A DNA stretch of 64,000 nucleotides. Source: Hyaloperonospora brassicae (taxonomy: Eukaryota; Oomycota; Peronosporomycetes; Peronosporales; Peronosporaceae). The notes below the pieces were generated by a model that was not told where the DNA came from, did no database searches, and was given only the letters and a program-made list of their open reading frames with translations. The position numbers and the translations under genes are program-made. Positions 23,287-64,000 of the stretch are shown in pieces. Position 1 is the stretch's first letter; each line of letters begins with the position of its first letter. The DNA lies in NCBI GenBank assembly GCA_947650285.1, contig CANTFL010000272.1, positions 1-64,000 on the forward strand. The letters are read 5' to 3'.

Positions 23287-23329
23287 CCTGGTAGCACTTG
23301 TAGTCCTTCCAAGGACCACATCATCCAAC

Positions 23330-30338: not shown

Positions 30339-30469
30339 GTTAACTATGCGAGGTCAAGCGGAAAGTGAATGGAACGGACCCAACAAGTGCTCCCTGTCCC
30401 AATGGTGGCCAACGGGTGGCCTCCATATTTTCGATAGTCACACGGTGACTATCAGTTAAGGGGGGGTGA

Positions 30470-30860
30470 TGTAACGGGGCAGCCCGTTACATGAAATTGT
30501 CACTTTAAGGAAAGTGACAATAAAGAATATAAAGATGGATATTCTTTAAACAATATCACCAAAGTGGTGATATTGAAGGGTCGACCAAAGGGTCTGTTCA
30601 TTGGTTGATATCGTGATGATATCAACCCACCAATCGCCGCAAGACGCGCGCAATGAGTGGTGACGAGACGTCACCATACATGCAGTTATATTAGTATAGT
30701 TAAACTAAGTCAAACGAAGAGACAGTAGTTTAAAGACTTAATTATATTAATATAACAGTTCTACTTTTACCCTACCTACGCTTCCTCGCTTGCCACGTGT
30801 ACGTCCGTCGGGGCACCCAAAACCCTTGCGTTAAGTTACGCAAGGGTGTGCCCCATTACA
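30470..30860 (+). repeat. Copy A 3' LTR
   Basis: 391 bp, preceded by the polypurine tract AAGGGGGGGTGA at 30,458-30,469 and followed by the CGTAT duplication. Confidence 0.95.
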
Positions 30861-36360: not shown

Positions 36361-36750
36361 TGTAACGGGGCAGCCCGTTACATAATATTGTCACTTAAGG
36401 AAAGTGACAATAAAGAATATAAAGATGGATATTCTTTAAACAATATCACCAAAGTGGTGATATTGAAGGGTCGACCAGAAGGGTCTGTTCATTGGTTGAT
36501 ATCGTGATGATATCAACCCACCAATCGCCGCAAGACGCGCGCAATGAGTGGTGACGAGACGTCACCATACATGCAGTTATATTAGTATAATTGAATTAAG
36601 TCAAACGAAGAGACAGTAGTTTAAAGACTTAATTCATTAATATAACAGTTCTACTTTTACCCTACCTACGCTTCCTCGCTCGCCACGTGTACGTCTGTCG
36701 GGGCACCCAAATCCCTTGCGTTAAGTTACGCAAGGGTGTGCCCCGTTACA
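36361..36750 (+). repeat. Copy B 5' LTR
   Basis: TGTAACGGGG ... CCCCGTTACA. The first 22 nt form a hairpin with 9-bp arms (TGTAACGGG/CCCGTTACA). Further hairpins follow, for example GGTTGATATC/GATATCAACC. Confidence 0.97.
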
Positions 36751-36752
36751 CC

Positions 36753-36763
36753 TGGTAGCACTT
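36753..36763 (+). other. Putative primer binding site
   Basis: TGGTAGCACTT starts two bases after the 5' LTR. The first eight bases match the 3' end of an initiator-methionine tRNA as found in many eukaryotes. The match does not extend, so the tRNA is uncertain. The same site is at 23,289 in A and 45,761 in C. Confidence 0.45.
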
Positions 36764-36794
36764 TGTAGTCCTTCCAAGGACCACATCATCCAAC

Positions 36795-37949
36795 ATGAAC
36801 ATGTTGGATGAAGAAGACACCTTTCACGCCACGCGTGAAGGGTTTACCCATTTGAGTGACATCGAATGGGGTGCGGTAGAACGAATGAGTTCTACCGTAG
36901 GCGAACTCGTCGTCAGCACCATGTTGGAGTCTCTAGACAGAGACCAACAACATGCTGCTATCGCCAAGTTCATTCACAATGAACTTGCTCTCGAGAGGGA
37001 GAAAGTAGCCTTGCTTCACCAGCAAGGCTCTCAACAGGCCGAGCAGTTGAGAGAACTCGGTGCTCAACAGACGGAGCTGTTGAGACAGCAGCAATTCCAT
37101 GCTGCTGTGGGCGGGACGGCGCATGCGCGTCGTCCCGAAGTGATGAAAGTCGACATCTCCAAGTACAGTGGAGTCCCGGAGGACTCCCTGTTACTATGGT
37201 TTGTCGAACTCGACAGAGCCCTAAGGGCTCGTCGCGTCGAAGATGAGCAAATGAAACTCACATTTGCTCAGACCCACTTGGCAGGGCGTGCCAAAACTTG
37301 GTCCCTGGGACTCGAGAGTAGCGACCCAAATGTGTTTAGGTCGCTAGATGACTTCAAGTCCCGGCTCAGACAAACGTTTGAGCCGCCACGTGCTGAGTTC
37401 AGGGCTCGTTCAGAGCTCCTGAAACTCAAGCAGGGTAAGCGTGATGTGCACGCTTACGCACAACATATACGACTCCTTGCGAGTAGTATAACTGCAAACC
37501 CAGTTCATGAACACACGTTGATTACGGTGTTCATGCAAGGGCTCGCAGAAGGGCCCGTCAGGAGCCACCTGTTCCGCCTTGAGCTGAATACGCTTGAAGA
37601 AGCGATATCAGCCGCGGAACAGGAAGACTTTAGCATGAGACAGGCTCATGCTAGCTCAAACTCTTACCGTCCACCGAGACGACAAGAGATCGGAGGTCCA
37701 GAACCAATGGACCTCTGTTATGTTGAGAGCGAGAGACCTCGCTCTACAAGCAACAAGCGATTGCAGAGGTGCAATCGCTGTCAGAAGTTAGGGCACTACG
37801 CATACGAGTGTAGTGCTCCGCGCCCAGTACCAAACAGTACTGAGCGAAATGGACGACCATTCGCCAGAAAGGGCAATGGGCGTGGGTCCAGCGCTGTTGC
37901 GAAGCCGCAACAGCGAGACGGGCCATCAAAAAATGGTCGGGGTCAGTAG
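36795..37949 (+). CDS. Copy B gag polyprotein, 384 aa
   Basis: Structural protein that forms the virus-like particle and binds element RNA. The ATG at 36,795 is the first in the frame, 44 nt after the LTR. Residues about 50-110 are Gln/Glu-rich and probably helical (REKVALLHQQGSQQAEQLRE). About 130-270 is the retrotransposon gag capsid-like domain (LLLWFVELDRALRARR ... FKSRLRQTFEPPRAEFRARS). A CCHC knuckle, CNRCQKLGHYAYEC (spacing CX2CX4HX4C), lies at about 326-339, followed by a basic Gly/Arg tail. The stop is TAG at 37,947. Pol lies in the -1 frame and is reached through the slippery site at 37,928. The sequence is identical to copy C at the protein level as far as compared. Confidence 0.95.
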   Translation: MNMLDEEDTFHATREGFTHLSDIEWGAVERMSSTVGELVVSTMLESLDRDQQHAAIAKFIHNELALEREKVALLHQQGSQQAEQLRELGAQQTELLRQQQFHAAVGGTAHARRPEVMKVDISKYSGVPEDSLLLWFVELDRALRARRVEDEQMKLTFAQTHLAGRAKTWSLGLESSDPNVFRSLDDFKSRLRQTFEPPRAEFRARSELLKLKQGKRDVHAYAQHIRLLASSITANPVHEHTLITVFMQGLAEGPVRSHLFRLELNTLEEAISAAEQEDFSMRQAHASSNSYRPPRRQEIGGPEPMDLCYVESERPRSTSNKRLQRCNRCQKLGHYAYECSAPRPVPNSTERNGRPFARKGNGRGSSAVAKPQQRDGPSKNGRGQ

Positions 37950-37967
37950 GGGCGGAGCGCCCTACTG
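37928..37967 (+). promoter_or_regulatory. Predicted -1 ribosomal frameshift signal at the gag-pol junction
   Basis: The gag codons TCA AAA AAT contain the canonical heptamer A AAA AAT (37,928-37,934). After a 9-nt spacer comes a stem-loop: CAGTAGGGGCG (37,944-37,954), loop GAG, CGCCCTACTG (37,958-37,967), with one bulged G. A -1 slip enters a frame that is open from 37,928 straight through the gag stop into the protease. Heptamer, spacer and stem are identical in A (24,462) and C (46,936). Confidence 0.75.
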
Positions 37968-37999
37968 ATCCAGCAACCTCAAGAGAATTTGCAAACCTC

Positions 38000-40900
38000 T
38001 TGACGAAAGTTGCTCCAGATACACAATCATTGTGTGTCTCTGCACCTGGTGATGACGTTTCGCTCATCACCTTGAAGTTGGAAGCGACAAATGACTTGTC
38101 GCTTCGTGCCCTAGTAGACTGTGGGGCGTCGAACAACTTTGTTCGTCGCCAGTCACTAGAGGGTCGTAGGCTCAAGTTCGTTGAGCGCGACCATCCCCTC
38201 ACAAGGATGACGGTGCGCCTTGCAACAGGCGCATCGATAACCGTTGAGAAACGTGTAGTAGGAATCCACTACACGTTAGAGGGCGAGCAGTACGATGATG
38301 ATTTCATCGTACTAGATCTGGATGACAAATTTGATGTCATCCTGGGATTACCTTGGCTCAGAAAATACGAGCCAAGGGTGAGCTGGCAGCATCGATCCGT
38401 GAAGATGCCTGCTGCTTGTTCATCAGATGGCCATCTGATGAACATCTTGGAGCGTCCACAAGCGTGTGGATGTTCTGCGAGTGAGTGCGATGGCCTCACT
38501 TGCGGTACGGTCGTTAGCACGACTGCACAAGGTCACAGTGTAGTTGATCACTACACTGTGGAGCAAGCTCCCGGCGACTGTACAGAAGTACAGGCTGCGC
38601 CGAAGGTCCACCACTCGAATAAGTCGAGTGGACCGGGACATGGATGCATGCCTAGCGGGCAGCATCTTAGAAGAAAGAAATCTGTTGCCCCCAAGGGGCA
38701 ACATGAAAATCCTAGGTCAACTGGAGAGTCGACCGTAGAGGATCGGTCCCTGACTGTGGTTGCACAGCCACAGTCGGAAGACGTCGAGGGAATAAGTCCC
38801 CACGTACTTGAGGAAGGAGTTCCTCAAGAGTTGCTTGCTGAGGGATCAGGCCCTCAGCAACCTGTGGAAGCAAGTTCCCAGGAAGAAACCGAGACGTTGA
38901 ACGTCTTGGTTAATGACGGATCAAGCGTAGGCGCTTATACGCTTGATCTGATTGTGCCTCCGAAGTTGACTTCGGAGATAACTCAGTTGCCAACGCTAGA
39001 ACCGAAACGGTTCTTGCGTGATCTGCGTAGTGGCAAAGTCAAGCAGATCTGCGTACTCGTCACAGAGGACGAGTATGTGACCGACATTCGGTCGGCAACA
39101 GTATTTGCTGAGAACGAACGGGTTCTCAGCAGCTCATCGATGGACGAAAGTGTCCTCGATGAGAAGACTCGGATTGAGCGATACGCGTCCCAATCCTGGG
39201 AGTCACTTCAGGCAAATCCTTTGTATAAGGATTTGATCGAATTCAGGGATGTGTTCCCTGAATCCGTACCTTGCGAGTTGCCTAAGGACAAAGGCACTCG
39301 ACACGAGATCGAGCTCAAACCGGGCTCGAAATACTGTGTCATGAAGCAGTGGCCACTGCCTCGTGAACAAGTGATAGCGATCGACAAGTTCTTTGCCGAT
39401 CGCTTAGCAGCGGGCCATGTGAGGGAATCAACATCCCCTCACAGCTCTCCGACCTTCTGTGTGCGAAAGGCCACAGGAGGGTGGCGGATAGTGCACGCAT
39501 TCAACAAGTTGAATGCTGCAACGGTACCGGCTCAGACGCCGATACCGAGAAAGGACGTAATCATAGATGGTATGTCAAAGAGTACCATCTTTTCGTCCAT
39601 GGATCTGATGGATGGATTCTATCAGATCCTGATGCGTGAACGGGACGTCCCGTTCACAGCAGTGAGTACCCCCAGCGGGATGCTGTGGGAGTGGCTAGTG
39701 ATGCCACAGGGGCTGAGTAATGCCCCTGCAACATTCAACAGATGTGTAACAAATCTGTTGAGACCGGTGCGAGACTTCGCACCGAGTTACTTCGACGATG
39801 TGTTCGTCCATAGCCGGGCTATGGACGGGAAGACGGACGTTGAAGTTCACAGAACTCACGTTCGTCAGGTTCTTCAACTTATGCGCAAGCATAAGTTGTA
39901 CGCCAACCTCAAGAAGTGTATATTCGCGGCTAGCGAAATACCACTTCTTGGGTGCATCGTGGGGAAACACGGCGTACGCCCTGATCCCGAAAAGATCAAG
40001 GCGATCACCGACTGGCCAGTGCCAGTCGATGTCAAGGGACTTCGAAAGTTCCTTGGTCTTGCGGCGTACTTGCACAAGTACTCGCGCAACTACGCCGAGA
40101 TGACTGTTCATCTTTCTTGCTTGCTCAAGAAAAATGTCAAGTGGTCATGGAACGCTGAGTGCCAGCGTTCCTTTGAAGGTATCAAGCAAAGCTTGATGCA
40201 ATCGCCGATCTTGGCGATTGCAGATCAGGACAGACCATTTCATGTGGTCTGTGACGCCAGCGATTTCGCAATCGGCTGTGCGTTAATGCAGTTCGATGCA
40301 GATGGCGCGGAGCGCGTCATCTGTTATCAATCGCGTCAGCTGCAAGCAGCTGAGCGTAATTACCCAGTGCATGACAAGGAACTCCTTGCCATGAAATACG
40401 CACTGGCTAAATTTCGCGTCTATCTCTTGGGAGATAGACCGTTTGTTGTCTACACGGACCATGCGTCATTACGCACGGCCGTAAACAGCCCACACCTCTC
40501 GCAAAGAATGGCGAGGTGGCTGTCTTTCTTCGCGGAGTATAACTTCTCCGTGGAGTATAAACCGGGACGACTCAATGTCGTCGCGGATGCTCTTTCGCGC
40601 CGGCCCGATTTCGAGCCGGACGCGCAATCCAACAGTGAGGACAAGCCCACTGTTGCGACACTGTCAGTCAGTGTCCCGTCGTCAAGTTTACTTGACGACG
40701 TACGAAAGGCATACGCGGAAGATAAGGATCTTCTGCGATTGATGGATCATCTGGTGAATCCATCCAGTAAATCCATGAGGGATTTACCGGCTTTGTACCG
40801 ATCCTCATCGGATCGGTATAGTACACGCAACGGATTGCTGTACTATACAGCTGTTGCCGACGACACGCCTCGTGTCGTCGTACCCGCTCATCATGATTTG

Positions 40901-41863
40901 CGATTGCGCATCATGTATGAGTGTCACGATGCCCCAACAAGCGGCCATCGTGGTAGAGAAAAGACTTACCTCACGGTAAGTCGCGACTTTTACTGGCCCC
41001 GCCAGTATCAGTTTGTTCGCAAGTACATCCGTGCTTGCGAAGTATGTCAACGGGTGAAGCCTAGTCCTTCATCCCGTGCGCCATTGCAGCCTCTGCCTGT
41101 TCCGACAGAGTGCTGGCAGTCCGTTTCAATGGACTTCGTCTTCGGGCTTCCCGAAGACGCTCACAAGAATAATGGTATTCTTGTGTTTGTGGACCGATTC
41201 AGCAAGATGGTCCATCTTGCTGCTGTCCCTGAGTCAATCAAGGCTCAAGGTTGTGCTCGTGTCTTTCTAGACACGGTCTTTAGACTCCACGGGTTACCCC
41301 GTGAACTCGTATCCGACCGTGACCCTCGGTTCACGGCGGAATTTTGGCAAACCGTGTTCCGTACTCTCGGAACACGATTGAAGATGTCCACTTCTGACCA
41401 TCCAGAAACAGATGGTCAGACGGAACGTGCGAACCGTGTCCTCGAAGAGATTCTTCGAGGATATGTCCACTCGTTTCCGAGTTGGAGCGAATTCCTACCC
41501 ATGGTGGAATTCGCCATCAATAATTCGGTGCATGCTTCAACACAGCACACACCGTTTTACGTGAATGGCCTACGCCATCCACGAGTGCCCACCCTTATAG
41601 AGTGTAACTCTTGGATAAGGGGGGAGGGACTCGCTCGAGCAAAAACCGTTTTGGCTCTTGCTCATCACGTGTCGACGCAAACGTCGTCACGTATGATGCC
41701 GATGTCGATCAAGTCGACATCGATGAAGAAGATCATCTCAATAATAGCGAAGACGCTATTATTGATTCGGATGATGATGACGATGCTGGTATATTCAGCA
41801 TCGCCAACGATTATGCCAGCGAGGAAGAAGACAACCTCGCTGAAGAAGAGAGCAATCTCTTAG
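38000..41863 (+). CDS. Copy B pol: protease, RT, RNase H, integrase (1,287 aa as delimited)
   Basis: Replication and insertion enzymes, translated most likely as a gag-pol fusion through the -1 slip; the frame is open back to 37,928 and no ATG is needed. Aspartic protease: VDCGASNNFV near residue 40 (Cys in place of Ser/Thr). RT: GGWRIVHAFNKLN, then catalytic SYFDDVF at about 595-601. RNase H: VVCDASDFAIGC at about 748, DKELLAMKYAL, VVADALSR. Integrase: HHCC zinc domain (ECHDAPTSGHRG ... CEVCQ), then Asp in SMDFVFG, Asp in VSDRDPRF and Glu in QTERANRVLEE. The last ~85 residues, from the G6 run at 41,619, are a frame artefact (Met/Ser/Thr-rich). The linker continues in the -1 frame from there. 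Confidence 0.95.
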   Translation: MTKVAPDTQSLCVSAPGDDVSLITLKLEATNDLSLRALVDCGASNNFVRRQSLEGRRLKFVERDHPLTRMTVRLATGASITVEKRVVGIHYTLEGEQYDDDFIVLDLDDKFDVILGLPWLRKYEPRVSWQHRSVKMPAACSSDGHLMNILERPQACGCSASECDGLTCGTVVSTTAQGHSVVDHYTVEQAPGDCTEVQAAPKVHHSNKSSGPGHGCMPSGQHLRRKKSVAPKGQHENPRSTGESTVEDRSLTVVAQPQSEDVEGISPHVLEEGVPQELLAEGSGPQQPVEASSQEETETLNVLVNDGSSVGAYTLDLIVPPKLTSEITQLPTLEPKRFLRDLRSGKVKQICVLVTEDEYVTDIRSATVFAENERVLSSSSMDESVLDEKTRIERYASQSWESLQANPLYKDLIEFRDVFPESVPCELPKDKGTRHEIELKPGSKYCVMKQWPLPREQVIAIDKFFADRLAAGHVRESTSPHSSPTFCVRKATGGWRIVHAFNKLNAATVPAQTPIPRKDVIIDGMSKSTIFSSMDLMDGFYQILMRERDVPFTAVSTPSGMLWEWLVMPQGLSNAPATFNRCVTNLLRPVRDFAPSYFDDVFVHSRAMDGKTDVEVHRTHVRQVLQLMRKHKLYANLKKCIFAASEIPLLGCIVGKHGVRPDPEKIKAITDWPVPVDVKGLRKFLGLAAYLHKYSRNYAEMTVHLSCLLKKNVKWSWNAECQRSFEGIKQSLMQSPILAIADQDRPFHVVCDASDFAIGCALMQFDADGAERVICYQSRQLQAAERNYPVHDKELLAMKYALAKFRVYLLGDRPFVVYTDHASLRTAVNSPHLSQRMARWLSFFAEYNFSVEYKPGRLNVVADALSRRPDFEPDAQSNSEDKPTVATLSVSVPSSSLLDDVRKAYAEDKDLLRLMDHLVNPSSKSMRDLPALYRSSSDRYSTRNGLLYYTAVADDTPRVVVPAHHDLRLRIMYECHDAPTSGHRGREKTYLTVSRDFYWPRQYQFVRKYIRACEVCQRVKPSPSSRAPLQPLPVPTECWQSVSMDFVFGLPEDAHKNNGILVFVDRFSKMVHLAAVPESIKAQGCARVFLDTVFRLHGLPRELVSDRDPRFTAEFWQTVFRTLGTRLKMSTSDHPETDGQTERANRVLEEILRGYVHSFPSWSEFLPMVEFAINNSVHASTQHTPFYVNGLRHPRVPTLIECNSWIRGEGLARAKTVLALAHHVSTQTSSRMMPMSIKSTSMKKIISIIAKTLLLIRMMMTMLVYSASPTIMPARKKTTSLKKRAIS

Positions 41864-42842
41864 CAGTGCGCACGAAGCGCACTGCTAAACAAAACAAAGA
41901 GTCAGCAGAGAACTTCCTGCTGACTCGAGAAGCGGTAGTCCGTTTCGTTCAGGACTCCATCGCAAATGCGGTGGACCGTCAGAAACGGAACGCAGACAAG
42001 AATGGAAGAGCAAATGTTCTTTCATTTAAGGTTAATGACCTAGTACTACTGTCAACGGTAAACCTACCTGGACATGCAGTCACTAGTGTCGGCAGTAGTA
42101 AACTACTGCCGAAATACATTGGGCCATTTCGAGTGTTGCATCGCAAGGGCAATGCATACACACTCGAATTGCCACGTAGGATGCGCACGCATCCTACGTT
42201 TTACGTGGGGAGGCTTAGGTCGTACTGTCAGTACGAGCCTTCTTCTTCCGATGAAGATAGCCCCCACGTTCAAGAACATCCATCAAGTTCTTGCGTTCGC
42301 GCTCCAGACGATCCGTCTGGTCGCGCAGATATGATACCTCGGTATTCAACCGAGTTATCTCTCCGCGAGCTGTCGCCAGCTCGCCGAAAAGGAGCGGACA
42401 TCCCGCTCGACCTGAAGCTGCGCCGTGGCATAATCGGCGCGATCCCTCGCCCGATCAGCCTCGTGACCCTTGCGGTTCTTCCGCACGGTGTCGGTCAAAG
42501 CGTAGCGTCGGTCGCGCTCGTGCTTCAAGTCATCGCGCAATTCATCGATTGCGCGATCCATCTCGTAAGGGTCGAGATGGTGGGCCTGGGGTTCTGGAGG
42601 AGGTCTTTCCTCCTCCACCACATCCTTTGGTGGATGCTCACGGTGATCAACGCTTTCTAGTGGAGCGTATCTTGAATCACCGTGACGATTCAGGATCAAG
42701 GACGAGCTACCTCGTCCAGTGGCGGGGGTATCCACCCTCTTGGAACAGCTGGGAGCCCCGCTCTCAGCTGTTGATGGATGTTGAAGGTCTCGTCCGCCAG
42801 TATGACGAGACCCATCCGATGAGTCCTGTGGCCCATCGGTAA
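41611..42842 (+). pseudogene. Copy B pol C-terminal linker and chromodomain, one-base deletion
   Basis: Entered from pol by a -1 shift at the G6 run 41,619-41,624. Carries an acidic linker ([12 protein letters not shown]), the integrase C-terminal region ([20 protein letters not shown]) and, after a frame break near 42,390 (GAAAAGGAGC against GAAAAGGGAGC in C), the chromodomain to 42,842 ([18 protein letters not shown]). Chromodomains of chromovirus integrases can steer insertion to particular chromatin. Here the domain is out of frame. Confidence 0.85.
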
Positions 42843-43818
42843 ACACGCGCCCTAGGCGCTTGTAGACGGATTGCAAGTTTGCAATCGCGTCACGCATCTC
42901 CGCCGAGAGGTGTGCCCTTCCCCAGGGCGAATTTAGGGAGTACACATCCCTATGTGCACGCTGCGAGTTGTCAACACAACTCGCACAAGGGTCTCCCCAT
43001 GTGAGGCAAGGAATGCCTGCCTCACTAGATAAACAATGCAACCGGTACCTAGCACCGGTTGGCGTTCGCCGTTCGAACCTGAGGCGTGTTGCCTCAAGTT
43101 TCTTGAGCCACCCTTCTCGTCCAAAATTCTTTACGTTTTGGACGAACGCGTTCCACGCAGCCAAAAGCGATGTTTTGTCACGCTTTTGGTTGCTATTGTA
43201 CCATCGATGTCTAAGGAAGACATCGAGATAAAAGTCTTCTTCAGCGCGAAAGTTCTTCGCGCTGGGACTCAAGCCGTGAAGCTCGGTTGCATCGAATAAG
43301 GGTATTCGATGGTGTTGGCCTGTCTCGTGAGACAGGCTATTGATGAGTTGTTCGGGCAAACGCCACGGCTTCAACTCATCACGCTTCACAGTGGTACCCT
43401 TGTCGGTACCACGGCTCCCAGATTGACGACGGCTCGCGCCATCGTCATCACGCTCGTGCGAAGACGCACGAGCCGGCGGTGGTGAAGAATAGAACCCACC
43501 ACCCTGATCATCGTCATCATTGCCGAACAGACTGTGATGCGAATCACGAGTCCGTTCGTTCGGCAGTGGCCTTGGCGAATACTGAGGCGTCGCCGGTGAG
43601 CGAGATGCCTCTGGAGCATTGCCCGAGTCAGACACGTCTGACTCGCCAGAGTAGATGACCTCCACATCGGGGTCATCGTGCGCACGCGGCGTGATACCGC
43701 GTGCACCTGCAGCACCTGTTGCTGCAGGCGAAGAAGGGGCGGCAGACGACGAAGCGTCTGCCGCAGAGGCTTGCACAGCACCAGGCTGTGTGGGTCTTGA
43801 GTCACCTCGCATAGACAT
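42355..43818 (-). CDS. Copy B antisense ORF, 487 aa, C-terminally truncated
   Basis: Same protein as the 534-residue antisense product of copy C, starting with ATG at 43,818, 130 nt inside the 3' LTR. The one-base deletion at about 42,390 that breaks the chromodomain also shifts this frame. The coiled coil therefore ends in a short foreign tail, and the basic C-terminus is lost. The function is unknown. See copy C for the description. Confidence 0.65.
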
Positions 43819-43948
43819 GTTAACTATGCGAGGTCAAGCGGAAAGTGAGTGGGACGGACCAAACAAGTGCTCCCTGTCCCAATGGTGGCCAACGGGTGGC
43901 CTCCATATTTCGATAGTCACACGGTGACTATCAGTTAAGGGGGGGTGA

Positions 43949-44338
43949 TGTAACGGGGCAGCCCGTTACATAATATTGTCACTTAAGGAAAGTGACAATA
44001 AAGAATATAAAGATGGATATTCTTTAAACAATATCACCAAAGTGGTGATATTGAAGGGTCGACCAGAAGGGTCTGTTCATTGGTTGATATCGTGATGATA
44101 TCAACCCACCAATCGCCGCAAGACGCGCGCAATGAGTGGTGACGAGACGTCACCATACATGCAGTTATATTAGTATAATTGAATTAAGTCAAACGAAGAG
44201 ACAGTAGTTTAAAGACTTAATTTATTAATATAACAGTTCTACTTTTACCCTACCTACGCTTCCTCGCTCGCCACGTGTACGTCTGTCGGGGCACCCAAAT
44301 CCCTTGCGTTAAGTTACGCAAGGGTGTGCCCCGTTACA
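43949..44338 (+). repeat. Copy B 3' LTR
   Basis: 390 bp, preceded by the polypurine tract AAGGGGGGG at 43,937-43,945, followed by the ACGAG duplication. Confidence 0.97.
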
Positions 44339-45370: not shown

Positions 45371-45758
45371 TGTAACGGGGCAGCCCGTTACATGATATTG
45401 TCACTTAAGGAAAGTGACAATAAAGAATATAAGATGGATATTCTTTAAACAATATCACCAAAGTGGTGATATTGAAGGGTCGACCAAAGGGTCTGTTCAT
45501 TGGTTGATATCGTGATGATATCAACCCACCAATCGCCGCAAGACGCGCGCAATGAGTGGTGACGAGACGTCACCATACATGCAGTTATATTAGTATAATT
45601 GAATTAAGTCAAACGAAGAGACAGTAGTTTAAAGACTTAATTTATTAATATAACAGTTCTACTTTTACCCTACCTACGCTTCCTCGCTCGCCACGTGTAC
45701 GTCTGTCGGGGCACCCAAATCCCTTGCGTTAAGTTACGCAAGGGTGTGCCCCGTTACA
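45371..45758 (+). repeat. Copy C 5' LTR
   Basis: 388 bp, TGT...ACA ends, identical to the 3' LTR by eye. Confidence 0.97.
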
Positions 45759-45802
45759 CCTGGTAGCACTTTGTAGTCCTTCCAAGGACCACATCATCCA
45801 AC

Positions 45803-46957
45803 ATGAACATGTTGGATGAAGAAGACACCTTTCACGCCACGCGTGAAGGGTTTACCCATTTGAGTGACATCGAATGGGGTGCGGTAGAACGAATGAGTTC
45901 TACCGTAGGCGAACTCGTCGTCAGCACCATGTTGGAGTCTCTAGACAGAGACCAACAACATGCTGCTATCGCCAAGTTCATTCACAATGAACTTGCTCTC
46001 GAGAGGGAGAAAGTAGCCTTGCTTCACCAGCAAGGCTCTCAACAGGCCGAGCAGTTGAGAGAACTCGGTGCTCAACAGACGGAGCTGTTGAGACAGCAGC
46101 AATTCCATGCTGCTGTGGGCGGGACGGCGCATGCGCGTCGTCCCGAAGTGATGAAAGTCGACATCTCCAAGTACAGTGGAGTCCCGGAGGACTCCCTGTT
46201 ACTATGGTTTGTCGAACTCGACAGAGCCCTAAGGGCTCGTCGCGTCGAAGATGAGCAAATGAAACTCACATTTGCTCAGACCCACTTGGCAGGGCGTGCC
46301 AAAACTTGGTCCCTGGGACTCGAGAGTAGCGACCCAAACGTGTTTAGGTCGCTAGATGACTTCAAGTCCCGGCTCAGACAAACGTTTGAGCCGCCACGTG
46401 CTGAGTTCAGGGCTCGTTCAGAGCTCCTGAAACTCAAGCAGGGTAAGCGTGATGTGCACGCTTACGCACAACATATACGACTCCTTGCGAGTAGTATAAC
46501 TGCAAACCCAGTTCATGAACACACGTTGATTACGGTGTTCATGCAAGGGCTCGCAGAAGGGCCCGTCAGGAGCCACCTGTTCCGCCTTGAGCTGAATACG
46601 CTTGAAGAAGCGATATCAGCCGCGGAACAGGAAGACTTTAGCATGAGACAGGCTCATGCTAGCTCAAACTCTTACCGTCCACCGAGACGACAAGAGATCG
46701 GAGGTCCAGAACCAATGGACCTCTGTTATGTTGAGAGCGAGAGACCTCGCTCTACAAGCAACAAGCGATTGCAGAGGTGCAATCGCTGTCAGAAGTTAGG
46801 GCACTACGCATACGAGTGTAGTGCTCCGCGCCCAGTACCAAACAGTACTGAGCGAAATGGACGACCATTCGCCAGAAAGGGCAATGGGCGTGGGTCCAGC
46901 GCTGTTGCGAAGCCGCAACAGCGAGACGGGCCATCAAAAAATGGTCGGGGTCAGTAG
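45803..46957 (+). CDS. Copy C gag polyprotein, 384 aa
   Basis: Intact gag, same protein as copy B: Gln-rich helical N-terminus, capsid-like domain, CCHC knuckle CNRCQKLGHYAYEC and basic tail. The slippery heptamer A AAA AAT is at 46,936-46,942 and the stop TAG at 46,955. Nucleotide differences from B are few and silent where checked. Confidence 0.95.
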   Translation: MNMLDEEDTFHATREGFTHLSDIEWGAVERMSSTVGELVVSTMLESLDRDQQHAAIAKFIHNELALEREKVALLHQQGSQQAEQLRELGAQQTELLRQQQFHAAVGGTAHARRPEVMKVDISKYSGVPEDSLLLWFVELDRALRARRVEDEQMKLTFAQTHLAGRAKTWSLGLESSDPNVFRSLDDFKSRLRQTFEPPRAEFRARSELLKLKQGKRDVHAYAQHIRLLASSITANPVHEHTLITVFMQGLAEGPVRSHLFRLELNTLEEAISAAEQEDFSMRQAHASSNSYRPPRRQEIGGPEPMDLCYVESERPRSTSNKRLQRCNRCQKLGHYAYECSAPRPVPNSTERNGRPFARKGNGRGSSAVAKPQQRDGPSKNGRGQ

Positions 46958-46976
46958 GGGCGGAGCGCCCTACTGA
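46936..46976 (+). promoter_or_regulatory. Predicted -1 frameshift signal, copy C
   Basis: Same heptamer, 9-nt spacer and stem-loop as in copy B, with no change. Confidence 0.75.
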
Positions 46977-47007
46977 TCCAGCAACCTCAAGAGAATTTGC
47001 AAATCTC

Positions 47008-50000
47008 TTGACGAAAGTTGCTCCAGATACACAATCATTGTGTGTCTCTGCACCTGGTGATGACGTTTCGCTCATCACCTTGAAGTTGGAAGCGACAAAT
47101 GATTTGTCGCTTCGTGCCCTAGTAGACTGTGGGGCGTCGAACAACTTTGTTCGTCGCCAGTCACTAGAGGGTCGTAGGCTCAAGTTCGTTGAGCGCGACA
47201 TTCCCCTCACAAGGATGACGGTGCGCCTTGCAACAGGCGCATCGATAACCGTTGAGAAACGTGTAGTAGGAATCCACTACACGTTAGAGGGCGAGCAGTA
47301 CGATGATGATTTCATCGTACTAGATCTGGATGACAAATTTGATGTCATCCTGGGATTACCTTGGCTCAGAAAATACGAGCCAAGGGTGAGCTGGCAGCAT
47401 CGATCCGTGAAGATGCCTGCTGCTTGTTCATCAGATGGCCATCTGATGAACATCTTGGAGCGTCCACAAGCGTGTGGATGTTCTGCGAGTGAGTGCGATG
47501 GCCTCACTTGCGGTACGGTCGTTAGCACGACTGCACAAGGTCACAGTGTAGTTGATCACTACACTGTGGAGCAAGCTCCCGGCGGCTGTACAGAAGTACA
47601 GGCTGCGCCGAAGGTCCACCACTCGAATAAGTCGAGTGGACCGGGACATGGATGCATGCCTAGCGGGCAGCATCTTAGAAGAAAGAAATCTGTTGCCCCC
47701 AAGGGGCAACATGAAAATCCTAGGTCGACTGGAGAGTCGACCGTAGAGGATCAGTTCCTGACTGTGGTTGCACAGCCACAGTCGGAAGACGTCGAGGGAA
47801 TAAGTCCCCACGTACTTGAGGAAGGAATTCCTCAAGAGTCGCTTGCTGAGGGATTCAGGCCCTCAGCAACCTGTGGAAGCAAGTTCCCAGGAAGAAACTG
47901 AGACGTTGAACGTCTTGGTTAATGACGGATCAAGCGTAGGCGCTTATACGCTTGATCTGATTGTGCCTCCGAAGTTGACTTCGGAGATAACTCAGTTGCC
48001 AACGCTAGAACCGAAACGGTTCTTGCGTGATCTGCGTAGTGGCAAAGTCAAGCAGATCTGCGTACTCGTCACAGAGGACGAGTATGTGACCGACATTCGG
48101 TCGGCAACAGTATTTGCTGAGAACGAACGGGTTCTCAGCAGCTCATCGATGGACGAAAGTGTCCTCGATGAGAAGACTCGGATTGAGCGATACGCGTCCC
48201 AATCCTGGGAGTCACTTCAGGCAAATCCTTTGTATAAGGATTTGATCGAATTCAGGGATGTGTTCCCTGAATCCGTACCTTGCGAGTTGCCTAAGGACAA
48301 AGGCACTCGACACGAGATCGAGCTCAAACCGGGCTCGAAATACTGTGTCATGAAGCAGTGGCCACTGCCTCGTGAACAAGTGATAGCGATCGACAAGTTC
48401 TTTGCCGATCGCTTAGCAGCGGGCCATGTGAGGGAATCAACATCCCCTCACAGCTCTCCGACCTTCTGTGTGCGAAAGGCCACAGGAGGGTGGCGGATAG
48501 TGCACGCATTCAACAAGTTGAATGCTGCAACGGTACCGGCTCAGACGCCGATACCGAGGAAGGACGTAATCATAGATGGTATGTCAAAGAGTACCATCTT
48601 TTCGTCCATGGATCTGATGGATGGATTCTATCAGATCCTGATGCGTGAACGGGACGTCCCGTTCACAGCAGTGAGTACCCCCAGCGGGATGCTGTGGGAG
48701 TGGCTAGTGATGCCACAGGGGCTGAGTAATGCCCCTGCAACATTCAACAGATGTGTAACAAATCTGTTGAGACCGGTGCGAGACTTCGCACCGAGTTACT
48801 TCGACGATGTGTTCGTCCATAGCCGGGCTATGGACGGGAAGACGGACGTTGAAGTTCACAGAACTCACGTTCGTCAGGTTCTTCAACTTATGCGCAAGCA
48901 TAAGTTGTACGCCAACCTCAAGAAGTGTATATTCGCGGCTAGCGAAATACCACTTCTTGGGTGCATCGTGGGGAAACACGGCGTACGCCCTGATCCCGAA
49001 AAGATCAAGGCGATCACCGACTGGCCAGTGCCAGTCGATGTCAAGGGACTTCGAAAGTTCCTTGGTCTTGCGGCGTACTTGCACAAGTACTCGCGCAACT
49101 ACGCCGAGATGACTGTTCATCTTTCTTGCTTGCTCAAGAAAAATGTCAAGTGGTCATGGAACGCTGAGTGCCAGCGTTCCTTTGAAGGTATCAAGCAAAG
49201 CTTGATGCAATCGCCGATCTTGGCGATTGCAGATCAGGACAGACCATTTCATGTGGTCTGTGACGCCAGCGATTTCGCAATCGGCTGTGCGTTAATGCAG
49301 TTCGATGCAGATGGCGCGGAGCGCGTCATCTGTTATCAATCGCGTCAGCTGCAAGCAGCTGAGCGTAATTACCCAGTGCATGACAAGGAACTCCTTGCCA
49401 TGAAATACGCACTGGCTAAGTTTCGCGTCTATCTCTTGGGAGATAGACCGTTTGTTGTCTACACGGACCATGCGTCATTACGCACGGCCGTAAACAGCCC
49501 ACACCTCTCGCAAAGAATGGCGAGGTGGCTGTCTTTCTTCGCGGAGTATAACTTCTCCGTGGAGTATAAACCGGGACGACTCAATGTCGTCGCGGATGCT
49601 CTTTCGCGCCGGCCCGATTTCGAGCCGGACGCGCAATCCAACAGTGAGGACAAGCCCACTGTTGCGACACTGTCAGTCAGTGTCCCGTCGTCAAGTTTAC
49701 TTGACGACGTACGAAAGGCATACGCGGAAGATAAGGATCTTCTGCGATTGATGGATCATCTGGTGAATCCATCCAGTAAATCCATGAGGGATTTACCGGC
49801 TTTGTACCGATCCTCGTCGGATCGGTATAGTACACGCAACGGATTGCTGTACTATACAGCTGTTGCCGACGACACGCCTCGTGTCGTCGTACCCGCTCAT
49901 CATGATTTGCGATTGCGCATCATGTATGAGTGTCACGATGCCCCAACAAGCGGCCATCGTGGTAGAGAAAAGACTTACCTCACGGTAAGTCGCGACTTTT

Positions 50001-50872
50001 ACTGGCCCCGCCAGTATCAGTTTGTTCGCAAGTACATCCGTGCTTGCGAAGTTTGTCAACGGGTGAAGCCTAGTCCTTCATCCCGTGCGCCATTGCAGCC
50101 TCTGCCTGTTCCGACAGAGTGCTGGCAGTCCGTTTCAATGGACTTCGTCTTCGGGTTTCCCGAAGACGCTCACAAGAATAATGGTATTCTTGTGTTTGTG
50201 GACCGATTCAGCAAGATGGTCCATCTTGCTGCTGTCCCTGAGTCAATCAAGGCTCAAGGTTGTGCTCGTGTCTTTCTAGACACGGTCTTTAGACTCCACG
50301 GGTTACCCCGTGAACTCGTATCCGACCGTGACCCTCGGTTCACGGCGGAATTTTGGCAAACCGTGTTCCGTACTCTCGGAACACGATTGAAGATGTCCAC
50401 TTCTGACCATCCAGAAACAGATGGTCAGACGGAACGTGCGAACCGTGTCCTCGAAGAGATTCTTCGAGGATATGTCCACTCGTTTCCGAGTTGGAGCGAA
50501 TTCCTACCCATGGTGGAATTCGCCATCAATAATTCGGTGCATGCTTCAACACAGCACACACCGTTTTACGTGAATGGCCTACGCCATCCACGTGTGCCCA
50601 CCCTTCTAGAGTGTGACTCTTGGATAAGGGGGGAGGGACTCGCTCGAGCAAAAACCGTTTTGGCTCTTGCTCATCACGTGTCGACGCAAACGTCGTCACG
50701 TATGATGCCGATGTCGATCAAGTCGACATCGATGAAGAAGATCATCTCAATAATAGCGAAGACGCTATTATTGATTCGGATGATGATGACGATGCTGGTA
50801 TATTCAGCATCGCCAACGATTATGCCAGCGAGGAAGAAGACAACCTCGCTGAAGAAGAGAGCAATCTCTTAG
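47008..50872 (+). pseudogene. Copy C pol: protease, RT, RNase H, integrase with one inserted base
   Basis: The protease frame (VDCGASNNFV) runs to 47,901, ending in a foreign tail. The remaining pol frame is open from 47,816 to 50,872. The difference from B is one extra T in GGGATTCAGG (47,851-47,860) against GGGATCAGG. RT (SYFDDVF), RNase H and integrase (HHCC, D, D, E) are intact and match copy B almost residue for residue. Apart from this insertion the pol would be complete; a sequencing or assembly error is an alternative. Confidence 0.9.
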
Positions 50873-51852
50873 CAGTGCGCACGAAGCGCACTGCTAGACA
50901 AAACAAAGAGTCAGCAGAGAACTTCCTGCTGACTCGAGAAGCGGTAGTCCGTTTCGTTCAGGACTCCATCGCAAATGCGGTGGACCGTCAGAAACGGAAC
51001 GCAGACAAGAATGGAAGAGCAAATGTTCTTTCATTTAAGGTTAATGACCTAGTACTACTGTCAACGGTAAACCTACCTGGACATGCAGTCACTAGTGTCG
51101 GCAGTAGTAAACTACTGCCGAAATACATTGGGCCATTTCGAGTGTTGCATCGCAAGGGCAATGCATACACACTCGAATTGCCACGTAGGATGCGCACGCA
51201 TCCTACGTTTTACGTGGGGAGGCTTAGGTCGTACTGTCAGTACGAGCCTTCTTCTTCCGATGAAGATAGCCCCCACGTTCAAGAACATCCATCAAGTTCT
51301 TGCGTTCGCGCTCCAGACGATCCGTCTGGTCGCGCAGATATGATACCTCGGTATTCAACCGAGTTATCTCTCCGCGAGCTGTCGCCAGCTCGCCGAAAAG
51401 GGAGCGGACATCCCGCTCGACCTGAAGCTGCGCCGTGGCATAATCGGCGCGATCCCTCGCCCGATCAGCCTCGTGACCCTTGCGGTTCTTCCGCACGGTG
51501 TCGGTCAAAGCGTAGCGTCGGTCGCGCTCGTGCTTCAAGTCATCGCGCAATTCATCGATTGCGCGATCCATCTCGTAAGGGTCGAGATGGTGGGCCTGGG
51601 GTTCTGGAGGAGGTCTTTCCTCCTCCACCACATCCTTTGGTGGATGCTCACGGTGATCAACGCTTTCTAGTGGAGCGTATCTTGAATCACCGTGACGATT
51701 CAGGATCAAGGACGAGCTACCTCGTCCAGTGGAGGGGGTATCCACCCTCTTGGAACAGCTGGGAGCCCCGCTCTCAGCTGTTGATGGATGTTGAAGGTCT
51801 CGTCCGCCAGTATGACGAGACCCATCCGATGAGTCCTGTGGCCCATCGGTAA
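50620..51852 (+). CDS. Copy C pol C-terminal linker, integrase C-terminal region and chromodomain (410 codons)
   Basis: Entered by a -1 change from pol at the G6 run 50,628-50,633; TTG is the apparent first codon, so this is not an independent gene. Contains an acidic linker (about residues 30-75, [20 protein letters not shown]), a basic integrase C-terminal region ([35 protein letters not shown]) and a chromodomain at about 340-400 ([20 protein letters not shown] ... [17 protein letters not shown]). Its 3' half overlaps the antisense ORF for 629 nt. Intact in C only. Confidence 0.85.
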
Positions 51853-52828
51853 ACACGCGCCCTAGGCGCTTGTAGACGGATTGCAAGTTTGCAATCGCGT
51901 CACGCATCTCAGCCGAGATGTGTGCCCTTCCCCAGGGCGAATTTAGGGAGTACACATCCCTATGTGCACGCTGCGAGTTGTCAACACAACTCGCACAAGG
52001 GTCTCCCCATGTGAGGCAAGGAATGCCTGCCTCACTAGATAAACAATGCAACCGGTACCTAGCACCGGTTGGCGTTCGCCGTTCGAACCTGAGGCGTGTT
52101 GCCTCAAGTTTCTTGAGCCACCCCTCTCGTCCAAAATTCTTGACGTTTTGGACGAACGCGTTCCACGCAGCCAAAAGCGATGTTTTGTCACGCTTTTGGT
52201 TGCTATTGTACCATCGATGTCTAAGGAAGACATCGAGATAAAAGTCTTCTTCAGCGCGAAAGTTCTTCGCGCTGGAACTCAAGCCGTGAAGCTCGGTTGC
52301 ATCGAATAAGGGTATTCGATGGTGTTGGCCTGTCTCGTGAGACAGGCTATTGATGAGTTGTTCGGGCAAACGCCACGGCTTCAACTCATCACGCTTCACA
52401 GTGGTACCCTTGTCGGTACCACGGCTCCCAGATTGACGACGGCTCGCGCCATCGTCATCACGCTCGTGCGAAGACGCACGAGCCGGCGGTGGTGAAGAAT
52501 AGAACCCACCACCCTGATCATCGTCATCACTGCCGAACAGACTGTGATGCGAATCACGAGTCCGTTCGTTCGGCAGTGGCCTTGGCGAATACTGAGGCGT
52601 CGCCGGTGAGCGAGACGCCTCTGGAGCATTGCCCGAGTCAGACACGTCTGACTCGCCAGAGTAGATGACCTCCACATCGGGGTCATCGTGCGCACGCGGC
52701 GTGATACCGCGTGCACCTGCAGCACCTGTTGCTGCAGGCGAAGAAGGGGCGGCAGACGACGAAGCGTCTGCCGCAGAGGCTTGCACAGCACCAGGCTGTG
52801 TGGGTCTTGAGTCACCTCGCATAGACAT
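51224..52828 (-). CDS. Copy C antisense ORF, 534 aa, coiled-coil protein of unknown function
   Basis: Reads against gag-pol, from ATG at 52,828 (131 nt inside the 3' LTR) to 51,224 within the chromodomain-linker region. Residues 1-140 are Ser/Pro/Ala/Asp-rich and probably disordered ([30 protein letters not shown]). About 160-330 is a conserved core with [57 protein letters not shown]. About 420-520 is a charged heptad-like coiled coil ([19 protein letters not shown]). The end is basic (HRKKKAR), a possible nuclear signal. It fills the whole region between chromodomain and polypurine tract. A homologue sits at the same place in element D. The family is unknown to me; an antisense promoter in the LTR would be needed. 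Confidence 0.7.
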
Positions 52829-52958
52829 GTTAACTATGCGAGGTCAAGCGGAAAGTGAGTGGAACGGACCAAACAAGTGCTCCCTGTCCCAATGGTGGCC
52901 AACGGGTGGCCTCCATATTTCGATAGTCACACGGTGACTATCAGTTAAGGGGGGGTGA

Positions 52959-53346
52959 TGTAACGGGGCAGCCCGTTACATGATATTGTCACTTAAGGAA
53001 AGTGACAATAAAGAATATAAGATGGATATTCTTTAAACAATATCACCAAAGTGGTGATATTGAAGGGTCGACCAAAGGGTCTGTTCATTGGTTGATATCG
53101 TGATGATATCAACCCACCAATCGCCGCAAGACGCGCGCAATGAGTGGTGACGAGACGTCACCATACATGCAGTTATATTAGTATAATTGAATTAAGTCAA
53201 ACGAAGAGACAGTAGTTTAAAGACTTAATTTATTAATATAACAGTTCTACTTTTACCCTACCTACGCTTCCTCGCTCGCCACGTGTACGTCTGTCGGGGC
53301 ACCCAAATCCCTTGCGTTAAGTTACGCAAGGGTGTGCCCCGTTACA
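52959..53346 (+). repeat. Copy C 3' LTR
   Basis: 388 bp, preceded by the polypurine tract AAGGGGGGG (52,947-52,955), followed by the TTTAC duplication. Confidence 0.97.
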
Positions 53347-62369: not shown

Positions 62370-62780
62370 AAGGGCCCGTACGACCGACTTCACGTACACA
62401 TGGCGTGAGGAAGCGCGACCGAGACAATACAGAACCCGAAACATCTATCTTGAGGGAAAAGTAGAACTGTGTTTAATATAAATTTGTCTGTTTCTAAATC
62501 ATCTTCCGTCTTTATCTAACTATATTAAACTACTGTCTCCTATGTGGGGCTTCTGTCCACCACCCATTGCGCGCGTCCAGCAGCAAATGGTAGTTAAATT
62601 GGTTGATGTACAATGTACATCAACCAAGAAGTGGACCCCTCTACGTATATTACCCTTAAAGGTCATATTCCGACAACATCATTCTTCTCGAGTAATGTTA
62701 ATTAAATGTTGTCAAAATAAATAATGTTCAAATATTGATACATTTGTATCAACGTTATGAAACGGGCTCACCCCGTTACA
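62370..62780 (-). repeat. Element D 3' LTR (reverse orientation)
   Basis: About 410 bp, left end uncertain. Contains a hairpin with 13-bp arms, TTGGTTGATGTAC / GTACATCAACCAA (62,599-62,627), at the place of the GGTTGATATC / GATATCAACC hairpin in A/B/C. Confidence 0.7.
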
Positions 62781-62916
62781 TCAACCCCCTCTCGTAACCA
62801 TCAGTCACTACACTGAGTGATTCAATTGGTTGGTAACAGAGTGACCACCGTTAGGTCTCTGTGTGGGAAAGAGATTACTTGTTGGTTCGATCCATATCAT
62901 TCCAATCTGTTAGCGC

Positions 62917-63998
62917 ATGACGATTTCGTCTATGCTCTGCGCGAGCAAGGTTGTCTCTGAAGCGGCTGCAAGGATGCGTGGAGACGGCGAACAGGCAAAC
63001 GAAGACTCGGCAGCAGGCGCCTCTTATACTGCATCTGCTGATAAACAGTCTGCAACACCCAATGTTGCAGGTGCACTTGGTCATCCACGTGCGGCTTCTT
63101 TATCCGCAGCTTCTGCTGCGGGTGGTAGTAACATAGACGTCGACCTCGAATAAGAGGTCGTCGATTCGAGCGAGTTGGACACCCAGTCCTACTCATATTC
63201 TTCCGCAAATTTACGACGTAAAGCTGTGGATGCGGAAATGACAACTGCTTAGGTTCGTGGCAGTCTTTATAAGACTCTGCACCGAGAATTTTTTGGCTCA
63301 TTCGACGATTCTGAGGACTCGTCGCGGGGATCGAGCCGATCGCACTCGTATTCTTATGATGCGAGCGAGAAACATGAGGGCGTTTATCATCGTAATGATG
63401 CCGATGACGCTTCACGGAGTGATCGTAGCCGTACCCGCAGCAATACCATGAATTGCGGCGATCGTAGTGCTAGTACTTAAGTTGGCACTACGCAAGAGGA
63501 TCTAGATCGTAACGCGTTACGATCTGCTCCTGAAAACAAACCATGGGTGCCTTCTCAACGCAATCTGAGATTTATTATAGCTATGTAACTGAGAATCAGC
63601 GGATCCCACTCCTCGGTTCGCCAAGACCCTACGGTCTTGATGTCAGTGCGAGAGATTTTTGCACTGAACCTGATATTTTCATCGATGTCTTTTTCAGACA
63701 TCGATAGTACCACGGCAACCGCAATCGAGCCGAAATTTCGGTGGTGCAGGCATGAAACTCATTTATCGGCAACGTCGAAAAAGTTGGTCGTGACGCTTGG
63801 CAGGACGATCTTGTTGAAGCTCGCAATAGGTTTCAATGGAACTCGCTATGTGATGCTCGGTACAAATTGCACCGATTGTCTCGAGAGGCAGATTTACCTT
63901 GCCTCTCGTGGGGAGAGAAATGTCAGAGTTTTGTTGACAACTCTGTTCTAGCCCCAAGGGAGGCCTTCCTCCCTAATCAGCCCTATTGGAGGGCGCGC
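62917..63998 (+). pseudogene. Element D homologue of the antisense coiled-coil ORF, broken
   Basis: From 62,974 the frame starts MRGDGEQAN and is Ala/Ser/Gly-rich (TASADKQSATPNVAGA), like MRGDSRPTQ and the following stretch in copy C, until a TAA at 63,151. The core reappears in another frame from 63,651: DIFIDVFFRHR, then NVEKVGRDAWQDDL, then YKLHRLSREADLPCLSWG, aligning with [21 protein letters not shown] and [21 protein letters not shown] at 63,705 and TGA at 63,753 each stand where copy C has Trp. The coding strand is opposite to the element, as in A/B/C. The coiled-coil part lies beyond the window. Confidence 0.75.
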
Positions 63999-64000
63999 AT

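What the first reader, a model, noticed from the sequence alone, without database searches (positions are those of the whole stretch)
45371..53346. Whole element tiled with short hairpins, including the coding regions
Perfect or near-perfect inverted repeats occur every few tens of bases through LTRs, gag, pol and the 3' region. Examples in copy C: 28-nt palindrome with 14-bp arms at 47,425-47,452; 11-bp arms and 3-nt loop at 47,089-47,113; 11-bp arms at 47,542-47,568; 22-nt palindrome at 48,645-48,666; 11-bp arms and 1-nt loop at 50,209-50,231; 12-bp arms at 51,183-51,208. By eye I counted about 20 with arms of 6 or more in 47,030-47,870. Codon choice appears bent to make the coding strand self-complementary in small units. 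Elements E, H and I do not show it. Possible meanings: RNA packaging or stability, a foldback-copying mutation process, or strand-symmetric sequence that suits coding on both strands.
Basis: seen in the sequence. Interest (0 to 1): 0.88.

Follow-up and report, generated by a model that had tools for sequence, protein, structure and literature searches.

The report
Jumping genes tiled with tiny hairpins
A group of retrotransposons in a water-mould genome is built from end to end, genes included, out of short perfectly self-matching stretches whose size differs between families, as if each element were kept folded on both strands, possibly to hide from the cell's silencing machinery.

Summary
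Element C (45371-53346) is a Ty3/gypsy chromodomain retrotransposon, probably of an oomycete. It holds 133 perfect inverted repeats (arm >=7, loop <=10) against 4.6 in dinucleotide shuffles. Its pol alone holds 47 against 2.4 with protein and codon usage fixed. The rest of the window, 30 other RT loci and a tubulin gene are near background. Related families share the trait, each with its own unit: 8-11 bp stems (C), 8-9 bp (L041), 5 bp with a 3-nt loop (L045). Stems are strictly Watson-Crick; G.T and A.C departures are about equal. Stems are conserved, show compensatory double changes between lineages, and in C and L045 have regulated stability. Spacer inversions and one-arm copying, marks of template switching, are not in excess. 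Each of four hairpin lineages has a copy with a 433-534 aa antisense ORF before the 3' LTR. My reading: selection keeps both strands folded, most likely so that sense and antisense RNA do not pair or feed silencing. Selection is fairly well supported; that function is inferred. Reverse-transcriptase snap-back copying is the main rival.

The parts
45371..53346 (+). Element C: Ty3/gypsy LTR retrotransposon tiled with short perfect inverted repeats (133 with arm >=7 and loop <=10)
   Evidence: ends TGTAAC...GTTACA, 5-bp direct repeat TTTAC on both flanks
45371..45758 (+). 5' LTR of C, hairpins from its first base on (45371-45392 is a 9-bp hairpin)
52959..53346 (+). 3' LTR of C
45803..46957 (+). 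gag (Retrotrans_gag, Ty3_capsid), 18 inverted repeats with arm >=7 vs 1.3 in codon shuffles
47008..47901 (+). protease ORF (RVP_2); counted to 47815: 15 vs 1.2 in codon shuffles
47816..50872 (+). pol: RT, RNase H, integrase; counted to 50619: 47 vs 2.4 in codon shuffles
50620..51852 (+). integrase C-terminus with SH3_Tf2-1-like domain and chromodomain
51224..52828 (-). antisense ORF, 534 aa, no Pfam match; 11 homologues found (best 86% over half its length, next 48% over nearly all); helical core and long coiled coil predicted with low confidence
47425..47452 (.). 28-nt perfect palindrome, 14-bp arms
49686..49709 (.). 11-bp hairpin; in copy A two of its base pairs are changed on both sides and still pair
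52328..52347 (.). 9-bp hairpin with a compensatory T-A/C-G change shared by several copies
22895..30860 (+). Element A, older copy of the same family (96% to C), hairpin tiled; 3' end approximate
36361..44338 (+). Element B, near-identical copy (99.6% to C), hairpin tiled; flanks ACGAG/ACGAG
62390..64000 (-). Element D (start approximate, assuming an LTR as long as that of C; runs off the window): reversed, diverged relative, about 66% identical to C over the 300 bases matched; some hairpins at the same places as in C

Best explanation
A clade of chromodomain Ty3/gypsy elements in an oomycete genome is kept, by selection, folded along its whole length into short perfect hairpins. Shown: hairpins far above codon- and dinucleotide-matched controls in every part of C tested; a unit size peculiar to each family; strict Watson-Crick pairing with no clear strand preference; conservation with compensatory double changes; stem stability held in a narrow range in C and L045; yielding where the protein is most conserved; decay in diverged copies. 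Inferred: the selected property is that BOTH strands fold on themselves. Each hairpin lineage seen has a long antisense ORF before the 3' LTR, so sense and antisense transcripts probably coexist. The most likely benefit is that the two RNAs fold locally instead of annealing into long dsRNA, and are poor substrates and targets for small-RNA silencing; small RNAs of both orientations map to LTR elements in the oomycete Phytophthora infestans (PMC3522703, passages read).
For: Excess over codon-preserving shuffles in five of five ORF segments of C. Background in 30 of 30 other RT loci (at most 3 hairpins of arm >=8 in 2.6-3.8 kb each), in L052 and in one tubulin locus. Folding-energy excess 44-49% in C gag and pol over codon shuffles, 12-13% in L041 and L058, 2% in L052. 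Sense and antisense strands gain about equally. Single-mismatch stems: G.T 12 vs A.C 13 (C), 8 vs 10 (L054), 6 vs 6 (L041, >=7 pairs), 2 vs 1 (L039), 1 vs 1 (L045). Stem energy varies less than expected for the given lengths: p 0.006 coding and 0.0005 non-coding in C, 0.026 in L045; AT-rich stems are longer. Compensation: both-changed pairs still Watson-Crick in 28 of 46, against 7-13 of 39-43 with slid partners; 10 of 81 pairs changed on both sides vs 1.7 in shuffles and 1-6 when slid. Third codon positions of gag, protease and pol together: variants shared by copies about 35 per 543 stem sites vs 150 per 1130 others; singletons 125 vs 327 (counts worked back from the rates). Hairpin cover falls with protein conservation (rho -0.45, p 0.007). 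Antisense ORFs of 433-534 aa in C, L041, L039, L045/L058, none there in L052.
Against: No expression, small-RNA or structure-probing data of this organism were available. L041 is only 17% covered by hairpins, thin for a shield against annealing. PMC3522703 saw no excess of antisense small RNAs and suggested that processes other than the usual dsRNA-Dicer route may act in P. infestans, which weakens the dsRNA step. Among variants shared by C-family copies A.C departures outnumber G.T (33 vs 16; singletons 98 vs 129), which pure two-strand symmetry does not predict. The stem/non-stem difference at third positions is reversed in the protease part (0.098 vs 0.073 shared variants per site) and absent at first and second positions of pol. 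The antisense ORFs of the three main families do not match each other by BLAST; L041 and L039 do, and a profile of the C group matches L039 weakly (E 4.7e-5). Only one hairpin-free relative (L052, 27% identical in pol) could be compared for the antisense ORF. L041 shows no length-GC relation. Several of the 30 control RT loci have up to 1.9 times the expected number of 5-bp stems. Compensatory changes can also be made by template switching (PMC8794818). The energy test on L048 and L057 is not independent of C. The structure counted was taken from C itself, and the tool warns that related sequences can exceed all shuffles.
Confidence: 0.45

Rival explanations
1. Mutation, not selection: the element's own reverse transcriptase snaps back on nascent cDNA and copies one arm onto the other, so imperfect palindromes are repeatedly corrected. 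The unit size would be a property of each family's RT.
For: Strict Watson-Crick arms without clear strand preference; restriction to the reverse-transcribed sequence, LTR to LTR; decay in diverged copies; template switching is known to create and help maintain hairpins and compensatory changes (PMC8794818) and to homogenise short inverted repeats in coding genes (PMC8604942), and was proposed for nematomorph coding palindromes (PMC6649704).
Against: In L045 stems do not grow: they stop at 5 bp and extend only at about the chance rate (126, 28, 7, 3 for 5, 6, 7, 8 bp); C has a broader range. AT-rich stems are longer in C and L045. Hairpins compared between L041 and L039 have their differences spread evenly over both arms (p 0.56 and 0.69; left/right 73/91 and 47/45). 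Spacer inversions 2 of 78 loop variants vs 1.84 by chance.
Confidence: 0.27
2. Structure selected on the sense RNA only, as in genome-scale ordered RNA structure of RNA viruses or dispersed Gag-binding packaging hairpins.
For: Whole-element folding-energy excess; the hairpins lie in sequence that would be in the genomic RNA (inference).
Against: G.U is not favoured over A.C and the antisense strand folds about equally well. No clear loop motif in the base tables of C and L041; L045 shows a mild preference for a C-G closing pair.
Confidence: 0.12
3. Selection at the DNA level: hairpins or cruciforms in single-stranded cDNA or in integrated DNA, for example protecting cDNA or affecting chromatin.
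For: Strand symmetry and strict pairing; excess of A.C over G.T among shared variants would be G.T on the minus strand.
Against: 5-bp stems are too short for cruciforms in duplex DNA (recalled); the A.C excess is absent in single-copy counts.
Confidence: 0.13
4. Chance, composition or codon bias.
For: None found.
Confidence: 0.01

Closest known systems
[quoted passage not shown]
   Same: Sequence order gives excess folding along the whole coding genome; linked to evasion of RNA sensing (PMC7642675, PMC3950689, passages read).
   Different: GORS is moderate (HCV 7-9%, SARS-CoV-2 15%, highest given there 23.4%; mine 44-49% in C gag and pol, with other shuffles and fragment steps), is measured on RNA and is described there as poorly conserved in pairing positions. 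Here stems are perfect, strand-symmetric, of a family-specific size, partly conserved in place with covariation, and in a retrotransposon.
Coding palindromes in mitochondrial genes of Nematomorpha
   Same: Many perfect inverted repeats inside functional protein genes, accommodated by codon choice and repeat phase (PMC6649704, abstract and passages read).
   Different: Those have arms up to 142 bp, and its authors favour upkeep by repeat conversion. Here arms are mostly 5-12 bp, at a family-set size, tiled every few tens of bases through coding and non-coding parts alike.
Template-switch mutations at short inverted repeats
   Same: Make perfect arms and compensatory changes, also in coding genes (PMC8794818, PMC8604942, passages read).
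   Different: Spacer inversion and concentration of change in one arm are not in excess here.
Plant Retand Ty3/gypsy elements with antisense ORFs between pol and 3' LTR
   Same: Antisense ORF in the same place (PMC11963269, start of abstract and passages read).
   Different: Those mostly encode a TRP28 domain; the C antisense protein has no Pfam match. A hairpin tiling is not mentioned in the passages seen.
Oomycete Chronos elements
   Same: Ty3/gypsy with chromodomain in oomycetes (PMC5348765, abstract and passages read).
   Different: Chronos has dual RNase H; the C pol ORF shows only the gypsy RNase H models. The words antisense, hairpin and inverted do not occur in that paper's main text.

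Membership tests
Ty3/gypsy LTR retrotransposon | LTRs, gag, protease, RT, RNase H, integrase in the order PR-RT-RH-IN | tested here: met
Ty3/gypsy LTR retrotransposon | chromodomain at the integrase C-terminus (chromodomain-bearing subgroup) | tested here: met
   PF00385 E 1.2e-13
Chronos (oomycete) | second, plant-related RNase H beside the gypsy one | tested here: not met
   only RT_RNaseH and RT_RNaseH_2 in the C pol ORF at E<=1e-3
GORS | sequence-order-dependent excess of folding energy throughout the coding genome | tested here: met
GORS | pairing positions poorly conserved between relatives (as described for HCV and sarbecoviruses) | tested here: inconclusive
   6 of 19 hairpins shared between L041 and L039 at 77% pol identity, 0.6 expected, with covariation; 13 of 19 not shared
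GORS | function in hiding RNA from sensors | not testable with these tools
   no expression data
Template-switch conversion | spacer inversions above chance | tested here: not met
   2 of 78 loop variants vs 1.84 by chance, C family
Template-switch conversion | multi-base change concentrated in one arm of hairpins that differ between lineages | tested here: not met
   p 0.56 (39 L041 hairpins) and 0.69 (26 L039 hairpins); shared hairpins included
Template-switch conversion | compensatory changes and perfect arms | tested here: met
Retand | antisense ORF with TRP28 (PF04195) domain | tested here: not met
   no Pfam match at E<=1e-3 in the antisense ORFs of C and A; those of L041, L039 and L045 not scanned

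The most novel reading that the evidence does not exclude
A clade of retrotransposons has evolved two-strand structured genomes: LTR, UTR and coding positions throughout the element are under selection for local self-complementarity on both strands, with a set-point stem energy that each family meets with its own unit (5 bp/3 nt, 8 bp/4 nt, 9 bp/5 nt). It would be a sequence-wide, protein-independent way for a mobile element that makes sense and antisense RNA to avoid dsRNA formation and small-RNA silencing.
Probability: 0.35. Interest if true: 0.93.

Novelty: new variant of a known kind. Interest (0 to 1): 0.85.

Why it matters
If selected, this is the strongest genome-wide folding I found reference to in a coding element, and the first in an LTR retrotransposon that my searches turned up (open-access library only, mostly listings). 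It would show that silencing pressure can rewrite whole coding sequences through synonymous and tolerated amino-acid changes. If mutational instead, it would show that a reverse transcriptase can imprint a palindromic texture of family-specific size on what it copies. Either way, families with 5-, 8- and 9-bp units and a hairpin-free relative in one genome make a natural comparison that allows the question to be settled.

Tried and rejected
Composition and codon bias: rejected. Sense-RNA-only structure: G.T and A.C departures about equal. Loop inversion as a sign of template switching: a strict first search over copy pairs found two small cases; the proper test gave 2 of 78 vs 1.84 by chance. 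One striking case in copy A (GTTTCC to GGAAAC at C 50155-50160) remains. One-arm copying: not seen. Sequence motif in stems or loops: mild preferences only (G...C ends in L045, GC-rich ends in L041). Even spacing: of the sets tested only L041 is somewhat more regular than random (CV 0.75 vs 0.98, sd 0.13). Stem conservation from pairwise identity was set aside because choosing stems perfect in C biases it; one search uses stems perfect in any copy. Relatives outside this genome: one scan each of viral contigs and genome contigs gave none. Antisense protein fold: mean pLDDT 51.5, so no fold search was made. Pfam scan of other RT loci failed on frame errors and was given up. Choice of loci: 20 places were taken by eye for from the 150 scored RT hits (3546 candidates), besides the 30 best fetched with it; 17 of the 20 are hairpin-rich at arms >=8, and two of the other three (L045, L058) at 5 bp. 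The 30 best are a different RT type by hit length; their element classes were not determined. Protein search: antisense ORF 11 hits; gag 278 hits, 120 listed.
Full report
What it is. The window is G000:C112:1-64000 of a 100.6-Mb, 898-contig genome. In the lists of gag (120 of 278 hits shown) and antisense-protein relatives (11 hits), each name that gives an organism says Peronospora matthiolae, so the host is taken to be an oomycete. Element C has LTRs at 45371-45758 and 52959-53346, gag, protease, RT, RNase H, integrase and a chromodomain, and an antisense ORF of 534 aa at 51224-52828. B is 99.6% and A 96% identical to C. A fourth, reversed relative D runs off the window end from about 62.4 kb; 300 bases of its 3' region match C at about 66%.

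The observation. C holds 133 perfect inverted repeats with arm >=7 and loop <=10; 100 dinucleotide shuffles gave 4.6 on average and 14 at most. Against 200 permutations of synonymous codons (same protein, same codon usage), arms >=7 number 18 vs 1.3 in gag, 15 vs 1.2 in the protease ORF, 47 vs 2.4 in pol, 18 vs 1.7 in the integrase end with chromodomain, and 26 vs 1.7 in the antisense ORF. Loops peak at 4-5 nt, arms at 8-10 bp, and the units follow each other with little overlap from the first base of the LTR on. They cover 39% of C (arm >=7, loop <=12).

Family-specific units. Of the 20 places fetched, 17 are hairpin-rich at arm >=8. They fall into the C family (75-99% identical to C in pol, by segment) and a second group 57-60% identical to C, made of L041 and of L039/L040/L042, which are 72-77% identical to L041. 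L041 has 8-9 bp stems with loops near 4 nt; L039 has spans of 22-23 nt. L045 and L058 (99% identical to each other, 58-59% to C) look empty at arm >=8, but have 126 and 119 stems of exactly 5 bp (loop 3-8) against about 25 in shuffles; in L045 the numbers then fall by about the chance factor (126, 28, 7, 3). Their units are mostly 13 nt long. L052 (27% in pol), 30 other RT loci and a tubulin gene are near background, though several of the 30 have up to 1.9 times the expected 5-bp stems. So the strong trait belongs to a clade, not to the genome.

Size of the effect. Folding energy of 351-base pieces exceeds that of codon-preserving shuffles by 49% in C gag (3 pieces), 44% in C pol (7), 38% in the antisense ORF (4), 12% in L041 pol (14), 13% in L058 pol (12) and 2% in L052 (11). 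For comparison, PMC7642675 gives 7-9% for HCV, 15% for SARS-CoV-2 and 23.4% as the highest recorded in vertebrate RNA viruses, with a different shuffling method and step.

Strand. If sense RNA were the selected molecule, G.U should be tolerated better than A.C. Stems with one mismatch have G.T 12 and A.C 13 in C, 8 and 10 in L054, 6 and 6 in L041, 2 and 1 in L039, 1 and 1 in L045. In L045, internal G.T is 5 against 11 expected, A.C 8 against 9. The antisense strand gains about as much folding energy as the sense strand. Against strict symmetry, variants shared by two or more C copies show A.C 33 and G.T 16, singletons 98 and 129, and overlapping-window counts lean to A.C in L041 and L039. I have no firm explanation; a minus-strand DNA effect is one.

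Selection. (a) Across 16 C-family copies, at third codon positions of gag, protease and pol together, variants shared by copies are about 35 per 543 sites in stems and 150 per 1130 outside, while singletons, mostly decay, are 125 and 327 (counts worked back from the printed rates). Gag and pol show it, the protease part does not. (b) L041 and L039 share 6 of 19 hairpin places in a pol segment, 0.6 expected. Pairs changed on both sides still pair in 28 of 46, against 7-13 of 39-43 with slid partners (hairpins perfect in both lineages are counted from both sides). (c) In a 458-column alignment of 11 copies and D, 10 of 81 pairs have a change on both sides, 1.7 in shuffles (0 of 500 as high) and 1-6 when slid (the structure was taken from C). 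(d) Stem energy in C varies less than lengths and composition allow: sd 2.99 vs 3.47 in coding (91 stems, p 0.006), 2.32 vs 3.52 in non-coding (33 stems, p 0.0005); L045 1.96 vs 2.20 (p 0.026). L041 shows no such effect. AT-rich stems are longer in C (rho -0.34). C and L041 reach about the same mean stem energy, -17 kcal/mol, with different lengths and GC; L045 sits at -10. (e) Hairpin cover drops where the protein is most conserved (rho -0.45, p 0.007, 35 windows).

Mutation as the rival. Template switching can make perfect arms and compensatory changes (PMC8794818) and homogenise short repeats in genes (PMC8604942). Its marks are not in excess here: spacer inversions 2 of 78 loop variants vs 1.84 by chance; differences in hairpins compared between L041 and L039 are spread over both arms; in L045 stems stop at a set size instead of growing. 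A snap-back bias of each family's RT would still explain strict pairing, strand symmetry and confinement to the reverse-transcribed sequence, so I keep it at 0.27.

Antisense gene. C, L041, L039 and L045/L058 each have an antisense ORF of 433-534 aa between pol and the 3' LTR. In other loci of the same call it is cut short (L046 and L057 227 aa, L054 183 aa, L040 167 aa); L042 shows none of 150 aa there; L052 has none there. B has 487 and A 291 aa. The C protein has 11 relatives found, one at 86% identity and ten at 32-53%. L041 and L039 proteins are related to each other (43%); between the three main families only a weak profile match of the C group to L039 appeared (E 4.7e-5). Antisense ORFs at this place are known in plant Retand elements (PMC11963269).

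Mechanism. I take the shown facts to mean that self-complementarity of both strands is selected. With an antisense gene in each hairpin lineage seen, the likely danger is annealing of sense and antisense RNA. Phytophthora infestans has small RNAs from LTR elements in both orientations, though that paper saw no antisense excess and suggested that other processes than the usual dsRNA-Dicer route may operate (PMC3522703, passages). Local hairpins on both strands would slow annealing and reduce accessibility. This last step is inference; thin cover in L041 speaks against it. Overall confidence 0.45.

Noticed in passing
51224-52828 (-), and loci L041, L039, L045, L058: Long antisense ORF between pol and 3' LTR in each hairpin lineage seen; the C protein has no Pfam match; C-terminal coiled coil and helical core predicted at low confidence.
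   Followed up: partly
1-434: Array of the palindromic hexamer GCCTAG, about 68 copies, at the start of the window.
   Followed up: no
6858-9272 and 13054-15468 (approximate): A 2.4-kb stretch present twice in opposite orientation at 99.4% identity, with ORFs matching an RVT_3-type RNase H and a chromodomain (Chronos-like), without the hairpin tiling; a second 1.2-kb pair at 98% nearby.
   Followed up: partly
62390-64000: Reversed, diverged relative of C running off the window; a hairpin at 63681-63705 matches C 52214-52236 in place and stem with a different loop.
   Followed up: partly
50155-50160 in C, matching place in A: In copy A the inner segment of a 10-bp hairpin is replaced by its exact reverse complement (6 bases, 4 differences), a possible single template-switch event; such cases are not above chance overall.
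   Followed up: yes
A, about 27000-27700: A patch of element A is only 83-88% identical to C while its surroundings are 95-98%, suggesting recombination between lineages.
   Followed up: partly
C-family copies: Among stem variants shared by copies A.C mismatches outnumber G.T two to one, the reverse of singletons; unexplained.
   Followed up: no
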